Assembly (NCBI GenBank): GCA_036872755.1
Contig: JAVHNS010000012.1
Span: 868,001 to 932,000 of the forward strand
Source of the DNA: Orbilia blumenaviensis
Taxonomy: Eukaryota > Ascomycota > Orbiliomycetes > Orbiliales > Orbiliaceae
DNA: 64,000 nucleotides
Reading direction: 5' to 3'
Shown one piece after another: positions 53,362-55,736 of the stretch. The translations under genes were made by a program, and so were the position numbers. The notes below the pieces were generated by a model. That model was not told where the DNA came from, did no database searches, and saw nothing but the letters and a program-made list of their open reading frames with translations. Every line of letters starts with the position of its first letter. The stretch's first letter is position 1.

Positions 53362-54240
53362 ATGGCTCCAAAGGTTGCTATCGTTATCTACTCTATGTAC
53401 GGGCATATTGGTATGTACTCTATATGATACCGTAGTTTTTAGTAGATTATGTTTGGCATTTACAGTGCAGACGAAGGGCAATTGGCTGACCGTAATATCT
53501 TCATATAGCCCAGATGGCCGAGGAAGTCAAGAAGGGTGTCGAGGAGGCCGGTGGCACCACCGAGATCTTGCAATTGGAGGAGACTCTCCCTGAAGAAGTC
53601 CTCACCAAGGTACCCTCGAACCAATCAATGATCTCTCAAGACACCATCGAGCATCTTGTACTAATCAATTATTTGTAATGTATCAGATGTATGCTCCACC
53701 AAAGCCATCGTACCGTGTTGTCTCCGACCCCAAGGATCTTCTCGAGTACGATGCCTTCATCTTCGGTATCCCAACCCGTTACGGTAACTTCCCTGCCCAA
53801 TGGAAGTCATTCATCGACAAGACCGGTGGTGTCTGGCAAAGCGGTGGTTACTACGGCAAATACGTCGGTCTCTTCATTTCCACCGGAACCCTTGGTGGTG
53901 GTCAGGAATCTACCGCCCTCGCCACCATGAGCACTCTCGCTCATCACGGCATGATCTATGTTCCATTTGGATATGCGAAGGCCTTCCCACAGATGACTGA
54001 TTTGACTGAGATCCACGGTGGCTCTCCATGGGGTGCCGGTACCTTCGCTGTAAGTCTTATCCCATAAGTCTCTAGCTTTCGTCTTTCTATCAATTATTAT
54101 CGAAAAAGTATCCGCTAACCCTGTCATTCTTGCCTTTACAGGGTCCAACCGGTGCTCGCCAACCTTCCGATAAGGAAAAGGAAATCGCCCGAATCCAGGG
54201 CAAGAGCTTCTACGAAACCGTCAGCAAAGTCAACTTTTGA
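53362..54240 (+). CDS. WrbA/Pst2-type NAD(P)H:quinone oxidoreductase (flavodoxin-like)
   Basis: FMN-dependent two-electron quinone reductase of the WrbA family (yeast Pst2/Rfs1/Ycp4, fission yeast Obr1, mould allergens of the Alt a 7 type). It protects against quinone and oxidative stress. Four exons: 53362-53410, 53509-53609, 53687-54049 and 54142-54240, giving 203 aa with phases 1, 0 and 0. The FMN phosphate loop region is YSMYGHIAQMAE near residue 11, split by intron 1. GIPTRYGNFPAQWKSF, GGVWQSGGYYGKYVG and STGTLGGGQE are diagnostic of the family. Exon 4 supplies GPTGARQPSDKE and ends KVNF at TGA. The stop is immediately followed by CTAG and an open 57-codon extension (listed separately). 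There is no targeting signal in the main form, which should be cytosolic. It converges with the AIG1-like gene. Confidence 0.95.
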
Positions 54241-54414
54241 CTAGCTAGCGATACTGAAAAGATCGAGGCTAACGGCGCCTCTGCTGGTAACGGGGCCGGT
54301 CCTTCTGCAAGCAATGGTGCTCATAAGGAGGAACAGCCACCGGTAACACAGGAGGAGCCTAAAGAGAGGGAATCTTCAGATAAATTCTGCGGGTTGAAGT
54401 GTAACCTACAGTAA
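54238..54414 (+). other. TGA-CTAG stop readthrough extension ending in a CaaX box
   Basis: The quinone reductase stop is TGA followed by CTAG, the high-efficiency readthrough context known from fungi and animals. The same frame then stays open for 57 codons to TAA (54412-54414). The extension is a Gly/Asn/Ala/Ser-rich then Glu/Pro/Gln-rich linker, and it closes with KFCGLKCNLQ. The last four residues, Cys-Asn-Leu-Gln, fit a farnesylation CaaX box (Gln as X), and another Cys sits four residues before it, as in doubly lipidated proteins. Relatives such as yeast Ycp4 have a longer, lipid-modified tail (from memory), so a tail of this kind is plausible. Readthrough is inferred from the sequence; no expression evidence is available. 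Confidence 0.6.
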
Positions 54415-54788: not shown

Positions 54789-55736
54789 TTACACGTTAAC
54801 TTTCCATCCTTCCTCTGTAATCTCGGCCTCTGAACCAACATCCCTCTTGCTTAACTTTCCATTCATGCCCAATTTCTTCTCGGTAATCCAAACTCTCAGC
54901 CACACCAGTCCCTTCATAATGCAAAACAAAATTGTTGTACCAGCCAAAATTCCAACGCAATATGCAGCTGTAACGCCAGATCCCTTGTGGTTGGGGTTGA
55001 GGAATGAGTAGGTATAGAACCCCTGAGTAGCTTTGGTGATATATGCAACTCCAAGATAGCCACCAAGGATGACGATAAGCCATGGGATGTGTACCCATGG
55101 CATTGGCTCTGTGCGTGGGATGATGATTTCAAGGAAGGCAACCACTGCGTTAATCGCGTGAACGGAGATCTGGGGTTTTTTTTCTTCGTTAGCAAATCTG
55201 TTTAAATTTTGGTATATACTCCGCACCATATCGCATTCTTTACATGCATAATCGAATCCGAAACACACGGAATTCCCTATTAGAATTTTTATAAGGGGGA
55301 AGCTTAAGGGGAAACTCACATTACTCCAAGCATCGTACTCCTCTTCGAATCCATCGAACAAAACCGCCCAATAGACGGCTGTCACAGTCCATGGCAAAAC
55401 CGTGATAGTTGTATAAAACACTCCATGCAAAAGTTGCAACCACTTCGGCCAACTCTCCAGCCACGCCTTTCCATATCTCCAATAACTAAATGTATGTGCA
55501 ACGCTAACCAGCAGATAGCACGTAATGCCCCAGTATGTAAGCCATGTGAAATAGCTAAAGCGCGAGCCTGCGATTTCTGGTCGGAGGGCGTTGGCAATTA
55601 TGATTACTAAGACGGAGTACAGACAGAGGAGGGCGCGGTAGGCGAGGAAGACGGGGGATGGGAGGAGCCAGGAGCTGAAGTAGCGAGATTGGCGGTGGGT
55701 TGGGGAGATGTGGTTCAGTTCGTAGAATTTAGCCAT
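54789..55736 (-). CDS. AIG1/FAR-17a-like multispanning membrane hydrolase
   Basis: Integral membrane protein of the androgen-induced gene 1 / ADTRP family, threonine hydrolases that cleave fatty acid esters of hydroxy fatty acids in animals; the fungal role is unknown. Two exons, 55736-55320 and 55169-54789, give 265 aa. The 150-nt intron has a GTGAGT donor, a GCTAAC branch site and an ACCCCAG acceptor. It is a multiple of three with no stop, so the unspliced frame is open (315 aa). About six transmembrane segments are visible. The conserved Thr lies in YFTWLTYWG (64 or 67) and the conserved His in ISVHAIN (143), restored only when the intron is removed (DAWSN-ISVHAIN). The C-terminus is charged and cytosolic-looking. 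Confidence 0.88.
   Translation of the reverse strand: MAKFYELNHISPTHRQSRYFSSWLLPSPVFLAYRALLCLYSVLVIIIANALRPEIAGSRFSYFTWLTYWGITCYLLVSVAHTFSYWRYGKAWLESWPKWLQLLHGVFYTTITVLPWTVTAVYWAVLFDGFEEEYDAWSNVSFPLSFPLIKILIGNSVCFGFDYACKECDMVRSIYQNLNRFANEEKKPQISVHAINAVVAFLEIIIPRTEPMPWVHIPWLIVILGGYLGVAYITKATQGFYTYSFLNPNHKGSGVTAAYCVGILAGTTILFCIMKGLVWLRVWITEKKLGMNGKLSKRDVGSEAEITEEGWKVNV

What the first reader, a model, noticed from the sequence alone, without database searches (positions are those of the whole stretch)
54238..54414. Stop-codon readthrough predicted to add a prenylated tail to a Pst2/WrbA quinone reductase
Seen: the gene ends in TGA followed by CTAG, then 57 in-frame sense codons and TAA; the last residues are KFCGLKCNLQ. 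Known: UGA-CUA(G) is the best characterised leaky stop context in fungi and animals, and fungi use readthrough to add peroxisomal PTS1 signals to glycolytic enzymes. CaaX boxes ending in Gln are farnesylation substrates. Inference: low-level readthrough makes a membrane-anchored pool of a soluble flavoprotein. To my knowledge a CaaX box hidden behind a leaky stop in this family has not been described. The linker-like composition of the extension, with no stop in 57 codons, is unlike the surrounding AT-rich 3' DNA.
Basis: partly seen in the sequence, partly recalled or inferred. Interest (0 to 1): 0.88.

Follow-up and report, generated by a model that had tools for sequence, protein, structure and literature searches.

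The report
Hidden membrane tail behind leaky stop
A quinone-reductase gene of a fungus related to Orbilia oligospora ends at a stop signal of an unusually leaky type, and just beyond it lies a lipid-anchor tail that other fungi carry as an ordinary part of the same enzyme, so one gene probably makes a plain and a membrane-anchored form.

Summary
The gene (four coding exons, 203 aa, WrbA/Pst2 type) ends TTT-TGA-CTA-G, followed by 57 sense codons ending ...CGLKCNLQ-TAA. The open frame alone is ordinary (9.4% of stop triplets in the window have one as long). The end is not: 59 of the 61 listed long forms of the same enzyme, from at least four other classes of Pezizomycotina, end in CGL-x(1,3)-C-a-a-X after a variable linker. 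The window's frame encodes a variant of that CaaX tail, behind a stop. The window groups with Orbilia oligospora (Orbiliomycetes), where 10 of 12 named full-length orthologues stop at the same residue. Elsewhere the tail is read in a continuous frame; near-identical short/long pairs suggest alternative splicing. In the window's last exon no GT before the stop fits GTRNG, though one of the gene's own three donors does not either. Best explanation: UGA-CUAG readthrough adds a prenyl anchor, as PTS1 is added to fungal glycolytic enzymes. Candida Ycp4 is a published CaaX-bearing relative. Not shown: readthrough, prenylation, DNA-level conservation of the stop in other Orbiliomycetes. PGK, GAPDH and TPI of this genome end in TAA, TAA and TAG, giving no independent sign of the mechanism.

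The parts
53362..53410 (+). coding exon 1 (MAPKVAIVIYSMYGHI + 1 base)
   Evidence: joined exons give a 203-aa frame; introns inferred from the protein match and GT/AG ends
53509..53609 (+). coding exon 2
   Evidence: intron 53411-53508 (GTATGT...TATAG)
53687..54049 (+). coding exon 3
   Evidence: introns 53610-53686 (GTACCC...) and 54050-54141 (GTAAGT...)
54142..54240 (+). coding exon 4 of the short form, ending ...SKVNF-TGA
54238..54244 (+). stop context TGA-CTA-G
   Evidence: matches the UGA CUA(G) motif of PMC4207609
54241..54411 (+). 57-codon in-frame extension: linker then CaaX tail
   Evidence: linker composition like that of long forms
54388..54411 (+). tail CGLKCNLQ, taken as equivalent to CGLPxKCaaX of long forms; CaaX = CNLQ
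54412..54414 (+). TAA stop of the long form

Best explanation
The gene encodes a WrbA/Pst2-type NAD(P)H:quinone oxidoreductase in two forms. Most ribosomes stop at UGA and make the 203-residue enzyme. A fraction misreads the UGA in its CUA-G context and adds one residue for UGA and then 57 residues: a flexible linker and a CaaX box (CNLQ). The Cys four from the end would be prenylated (farnesyl most likely, as X is Gln; recalled), trimmed and methylated, and the Cys of CGL may be palmitoylated. This would fix the long form to a membrane, probably the plasma membrane, to reduce membrane quinones. Shown: the frame, the stop context, the match of the tail to that of long forms elsewhere. Inferred: readthrough itself, its level, the lipid, the place, and that splicing gives the long form in other classes.
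For: TGA-CTA-G and the open frame. CUA after UGA was sufficient for efficient readthrough in Ustilago maydis, and a following G is noted as part of the weak context (PMC4207609, sections 5 part 1 and 11). 59 of 61 listed long forms end CGL-x(1,3)-C-x-x-x; X is L, Q, M, S or V in 59 of 59. The last 12 positions are conserved (mean majority fraction 0.81, against 0.29 in the linker and 0.80 in the core; the 59 were picked by their end motif). The extension's linker scores higher for long-form linker composition than the equally placed stretch of 488 of 488 other open frames. 10 of 12 named full-length Orbiliomycete proteins, and 6 of 7 unnamed ones that fall near them in the tree, end at the same VNF residue. 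In exon 4 before the stop, 0 of 4 GT fit GTRNG. PF00432 prenyltransferase matches lie at three loci of the genome. RNA from the stop on folds better than 199 of 200 shuffles (z -2.48): weak, since 5 of 196 GC-matched stretches of the window fold as well.
Against: No orthologous DNA from another Orbiliomycete was available, so conservation of TGA-CTA and of the tail in the class is untested. None of the 12 named Orbiliomycete proteins has the tail, and a search with the extension gave 3 candidates, none at E <= 10. A profile of the known tails does not lift the extension above background (best domain 0.3 bits). The window lacks GP before CGL (GPCGL in 58 of 59, KFCGL in 0 of 59), lacks the P and a further residue before KC, and has a2 = Leu (0 of 59). 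Splicing is not excluded: one of the gene's own three donors (GTACCC) also fails GTRNG; two short frame-keeping candidates (42 and 48 nt, donor GTCAGC) have a TTTGAC branch-like site; and the canonical donor of intron 3 could join any of 10 in-frame AG in the extension, at the cost of the last 32 core residues. PGK, GAPDH and TPI of the same genome end in TAA, TAA, TAG.
Confidence: 0.71

Rival explanations
1. The long form is made by alternative splicing here too: an intron with weak signals, or intron 3 with a farther acceptor, removes the TGA in some transcripts.
For: Three near-identical short/long pairs elsewhere diverge only at the very end of the short form, apart from one change at residue 49 in the third: P0063/P0082 agree over 204 residues, then read G-IANG against A-stop; P0135/P0193 agree over 203, then KKEAAP against stop; P0042/P0077 differ at 203 (D/V), then read G-AKVENG against G-stop. 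These fit splice junctions near the stop. In the window, two short candidates (54220-54261 and 54220-54267, donor GTCAGC, TTTGAC branch-like site) keep the frame, and 10 in-frame AG in the extension could pair with the intron 3 donor.
Against: The four GT of exon 4 before the stop fail GTRNG and three of them lack a purine at +3, while the gene's three own donors all read GTA; those introns are 77-98 nt. Using the intron 3 donor would delete the last 32 core residues. No long form is among the 12 named Orbiliomycete proteins or the 7 unnamed ones.
Confidence: 0.15
2. The tail is a relic: the ancestor's exon is still open but no longer translated in this lineage.
For: No direct evidence of translation; the end departs from the consensus (KFCGLKC for GPCGLPxKC); PGK, GAPDH and TPI here show no TGA-CTA.
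Against: The frame, both Cys and a CaaX with an aliphatic a2 and an X seen in 23 of 59 long forms are intact, although 10 of 12 named Orbiliomycete proteins end at that residue, so the stop looks old in the class. A relic would need no TGA-CTA-G context.
Confidence: 0.1
3. Chance: a leaky-looking stop followed by a random open frame.
For: An open run of at least 57 codons follows 9.4% of stop triplets in the window; the profile search was negative.
Against: The end matches the tail of this same gene family; the anchored motif arose once in 60 simulated windows of 127,996 codons.
Confidence: 0.02
4. An assembly or base error turned a sense codon into TGA, and the long form is the only product.
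For: Long forms are the listed product in many other fungi.
Against: 10 of 12 named Orbiliomycete proteins end at the same residue, so a stop is expected there.
Confidence: 0.02

Closest known systems
UGA-CUA readthrough making peroxisomal isoforms of fungal enzymes (Freitag 2012 as told in review PMC3798809, passages; Stiebler 2014 PMC4207609, outline and sections 5 part 1 and 11)
   Same: Cytosolic enzyme, UGA CUA(G) stop context, C-terminal extension with a targeting signal; splicing is told for U. maydis GAPDH and A. nidulans PGK, readthrough for GAPDH, PGK and TPI
   Different: Targeting signal is a CaaX box, not PTS1; the enzyme is a flavin quinone reductase; readthrough not measured
Candida albicans Ycp4 (PMC4556627, passages)
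   Same: Flavodoxin-like quinone reductase family with a C-terminal extension ending in a CAAX box; GFP fusion at the plasma membrane
   Different: Separate gene with the tail in its normal frame; extension about 90 residues; relatives without the extension were also seen at the plasma membrane
Long forms of Pst2/'minor allergen Alt a 7' in Penicillium, Aspergillus, Colletotrichum, Fusarium, Botrytis, Pyrenophora and others
   Same: Same core, variable linker, CaaX end with CGL before it
   Different: Continuous reading frame as listed; GPCGLPxKC where the window has KFCGLKC
Drosophila Syx17 readthrough extension (PMC3840789, Table 2 passage)
   Same: Predicted farnesylation signal in a readthrough extension
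   Different: Unrelated protein; signal predicted only; an animal

Membership tests
WrbA / NAD(P)H:quinone oxidoreductase type IV (TIGR01755) | score above the curated cut-off | tested here: met
   194 bits against 132.5
UGA-CUA functional readthrough | UGA followed by CUA, often G | tested here: met
   TGA CTA G at 54238-54244
UGA-CUA functional readthrough | in-frame extension with a recognisable targeting signal | tested here: met
   57 codons ending in a CaaX tail like that of long forms
UGA-CUA functional readthrough | stop context and extension conserved at DNA level in relatives | not testable with these tools
   no orthologous fungal DNA found: genome contigs kept the best 80 of 567 stretches, titled as prokaryotes; viral contigs one partial match; only protein ends compared
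UGA-CUA functional readthrough | extended protein observed | not testable with these tools
   needs an experiment
CaaX prenylation substrate | Cys four from the C terminus, aliphatic a2, allowed X | tested here: met
   CNLQ. Leu at a2 is in 0 of 59 long forms, Gln at X in 23 of 59. That Gln favours farnesyl is recalled
CaaX prenylation substrate | prenyltransferase genes in the same genome | tested here: met
   PF00432 matches at three loci, on C19, C4 and C1; which is FTase was not worked out
CaaX prenylation substrate | lipid attached in vivo | not testable with these tools
   needs an experiment
Alternative-splicing isoform pair (as suggested for other fungi) | usable donor and acceptor that skip the short form's stop in frame | tested here: inconclusive
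   0 of 4 exon-4 GT fit GTRNG, 24 frame-keeping pairs with these weak donors; 10 in-frame AG could pair with the intron 3 donor; one of the gene's own donors fails GTRNG too
Ycp4-like CaaX paralogue | separate gene with the tail in frame | tested here: not met
   one match to exon 3 in the genome, tail behind TGA; the other FMN_red gene found, on C1, ends ...SPASA with no CaaX in the frame read

The most novel reading that the evidence does not exclude
A plain/lipid-anchored pair of one quinone reductase is ancestral to Pezizomycotina; the anchored form comes from splicing in other classes, and in Orbiliomycetes the route was swapped for programmed UGA-CUAG readthrough, making the membrane pool a direct readout of termination fidelity (and so perhaps of oxygen, redox or nutrient state). 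In the papers I could search it would be the first conserved enzyme family shown to use readthrough for prenyl anchoring.
Probability: 0.42. Interest if true: 0.82.

Novelty: new variant of a known kind. Interest (0 to 1): 0.7.

Why it matters
The readthrough isoforms with a known purpose that I met in the papers are mostly peroxisomal. This case would show the same leaky stop used to make a lipid-anchored pool of an antioxidant enzyme, with an evolutionary control built in: other fungi carry the same kind of tail in a continuous frame. It also shows that a CaaX form of this enzyme is widespread in filamentous fungi, although many records list only the short form.

Tried and rejected
Open frame length and GC as main evidence: rejected as weak. 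Profile HMM of the last 24 residues: the extension did not rise above background, so I used an anchored motif with a simulated and a whole-genome control; its range was set after seeing the window, which flatters it. The second genome match to CGLKCxxx-stop (C17:801846) lies in a short frame with stops and was taken as chance.

Classical genes of the same genome: PGK ends TAA, GAPDH TAA, TPI TAG; negative. The other FMN_red gene (C1) has no CaaX end in the frame read. Fungal orthologue DNA in genome contigs and viral contigs: 80 loci titled as prokaryotes (best 80 of 567) and one partial match; not used. Search with the extension alone: 3 candidates, none at E <= 10. No structure was predicted and no fold search run.

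On re-checking I withdrew a stronger claim: the P0042/P0077 pair (D/V at residue 203) could be a plain substitution, so it does not exclude readthrough in Colletotrichum; and one of the gene's own donors fails GTRNG. Some long forms (P0136, P0138, P0141, P0153) skip the FYETVAK stretch; predictors may have forced introns to jump a stop, so the mechanism in those species is open. Rows dropped before the count: proteins of 330 aa or more (32 of 197) and those without WGAG[TSP]; 149 of 197 kept (many Orbiliomycete rows read WGSG and are counted apart, where the 153-aa P0078 was left out). Both protein searches list only the best 120 matches, so the 61 long forms are not a random sample.

Full report
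What is there. The gene has coding exons 53362-53410, 53509-53609, 53687-54049 and 54142-54240, which join to a 203-residue protein. It scores 194 bits against the 132.5-bit cut-off for NAD(P)H:quinone oxidoreductase type IV, WrbA. A search with its exon 3 finds one place in the genome, itself; a Pfam FMN_red search finds one other gene, on C1, in two adjacent stretches over the cut-off, which ends without a CaaX box in the frame read. In a tree of 30 proteins the window groups with Orbilia oligospora (92% identity) and Arthrobotrys megalospora (support 95/85 for the three). O. oligospora belongs to Orbiliomycetes; that it is a nematode-trapping fungus is recalled.

The stop and the extension. 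The gene ends AAC TTT TGA CTA GCT. After TGA (54238-54240) come 57 sense codons and TAA: LASDTEKIEANGASAGNGAGPSASNGAHKEEQPPVTQEEPKERESSDKFCGLKCNLQ. In the window 489 of 5193 stop triplets are followed by at least 57 open codons, so length alone proves little; 20 of 5193 are TGA-CTA, and 0 of 78 open runs of at least 120 codons end so. Stiebler et al. 2014 report that CUA after UGA was sufficient for efficient readthrough in Ustilago maydis and note a G after it as part of the weak context (PMC4207609, sections 5 part 1 and 11). The window has UGA CUA G.

The tail is a family tail. Two protein searches listed the best 120 of 6718 and of 7020 matches, 197 different proteins. Of the 149 shorter than 330 residues and with a WGAG[TSP] motif, 61 have at least 60 residues from that motif on, and 59 of these 61 end in CGL-x(1,3)-C-x-x-x; the other two end differently (P0118, and P0142, which has CGLP and then runs on). 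Their names include Eurotiomycetes (Penicillium, Aspergillus, Paecilomyces), Sordariomycetes (Colletotrichum, Fusarium, Podospora and kin), Leotiomycetes (Botrytis, Sclerotinia, Rhynchosporium, Lachnellula) and Dothideomycetes (Pyrenophora, Phyllosticta); these class names are recalled. The linker is not conserved (mean majority fraction 0.29), while the last 12 positions are as conserved as the core (0.81 against 0.80; the 59 were chosen by their end). The last four residues are CaaX boxes: a2 is I 38, V 18, M 3; X is L 24, Q 23, M 8, S 3, V 1. The window's KFCGLKCNLQ keeps C, G, L, K, C and an allowed CaaX, but lacks the GP before CGL that 58 of 59 have, lacks the P and one more residue before KC, and has Leu at a2, seen in 0 of 59. 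A plain profile search does not find it. I rely on the anchored motif: one occurrence in 127,996 codons of the window and one in 60 simulated windows; two in the whole genome for the CGLKCxxx-stop pattern against two for the reversed control, the other one in a short frame with stops. The linker composition is also like that of the long forms: 0 of 488 equally placed stretches score as high, though 4 of 764 open frames hold a stretch that does.

How other fungi make it. Three near-identical short/long pairs diverge at the end of the short form. P0063 and P0082 agree over 204 residues, then read G-IANG against A-stop. P0135 and P0193, both named Paecilomyces lecythidis, agree over 203, then KKEAAP against stop, which fits a donor overlapping the stop codon. 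P0042 and P0077 differ at 49 and at 203 (D/V); the latter may be a substitution between species. Splicing with a junction at or near the stop is the simplest reading of the first two; it is inference from proteins, without DNA. P0063 is on a 1058-base contig with an unbroken 250-codon frame, which suggests a transcript. Whether most classes splice is not shown.

Splicing in the window. Before the stop, exon 4 has four GT (GTCCAA, GTGCTC, GTCAGC, GTCAAC), none fitting GTRNG; but the gene's own donors are GTATGT, GTACCC and GTAAGT, and GTACCC fails it too, so the test is soft. 24 frame-keeping pairs of 40-250 nt exist with these donors; two (42 and 48 nt, donor GTCAGC) have a TTTGAC branch-like site. 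The intron 3 donor could reach 10 in-frame AG in the extension, at the cost of 32 core residues. In Orbiliomycetes 10 of 12 named full-length orthologues and 6 of 7 unnamed neighbours in the tree end at VNF and none is long (the place of some unnamed rows is not well supported). This fits a stop that annotation cannot cross, but also fits loss of the tail in those species.

What it probably does. Candida albicans Ycp4, of the same family, has a C-terminal extension ending in a CAAX box. GFP fusions of all four Candida family members gave plasma-membrane signal, also the three without that extension, with some cytoplasmic signal; the authors name ubiquinone as the most likely target (PMC4556627, passages). 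The short form may therefore not be purely soluble, and the tail may strengthen or redirect binding. The genome has prenyltransferase matches at three loci. RNA from the stop on folds better than 199 of 200 shuffles (z -2.48), but 5 of 196 GC-matched stretches fold as well.

Against. No DNA of another Orbiliomycete was available. PGK, GAPDH and TPI of this genome end in TAA, TAA and TAG. Nothing here shows translation past the stop.

Known and new. Splicing and readthrough as routes to peroxisomal isoforms of the same glycolytic enzymes are known in fungi (PMC3798809, passages). A farnesylation signal in a readthrough extension was predicted for Drosophila Syx17 (PMC3840789, passages). Nine paper searches listed no title or abstract start that describes readthrough or splicing producing a CaaX form of this enzyme; one search showed 20 of 1516, and subscription papers are mostly outside that library. 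I rate it a new variant of a known kind.

Noticed in passing
P0058, P0069, P0076, P0081, P0095, P0102: Six listed long forms begin MCF(P/G) with a K-rich N-terminal extension and have no C-terminal tail; two are named basidiomycetes (Athelia, Ganoderma), four unnamed. Possibly another, N-terminal, lipid-anchored isoform.
   Followed up: no
window 54789-55736, minus strand: 315-aa open frame with several hydrophobic stretches facing the finding's gene; no Pfam family at E <= 0.001.
   Followed up: partly
P0136, P0138, P0141, P0153: Listed long forms in Colletotrichum and Aspergillus skip the last core residues (FYETVAK); perhaps predictors forced an intron around a stop, so readthrough may also exist outside Orbiliomycetes.
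   Followed up: no
G000:C17:801846-801872 (L094): Second genome match to CGLKCxxx-stop (CGLKCCLQ) in a short frame with stops; looks like chance.
   Followed up: yes
P0002, P0004-P0010: WrbA-like proteins of 414-454 aa, about twice the usual length; names include Gymnopilus and Symbiodinium.
   Followed up: no
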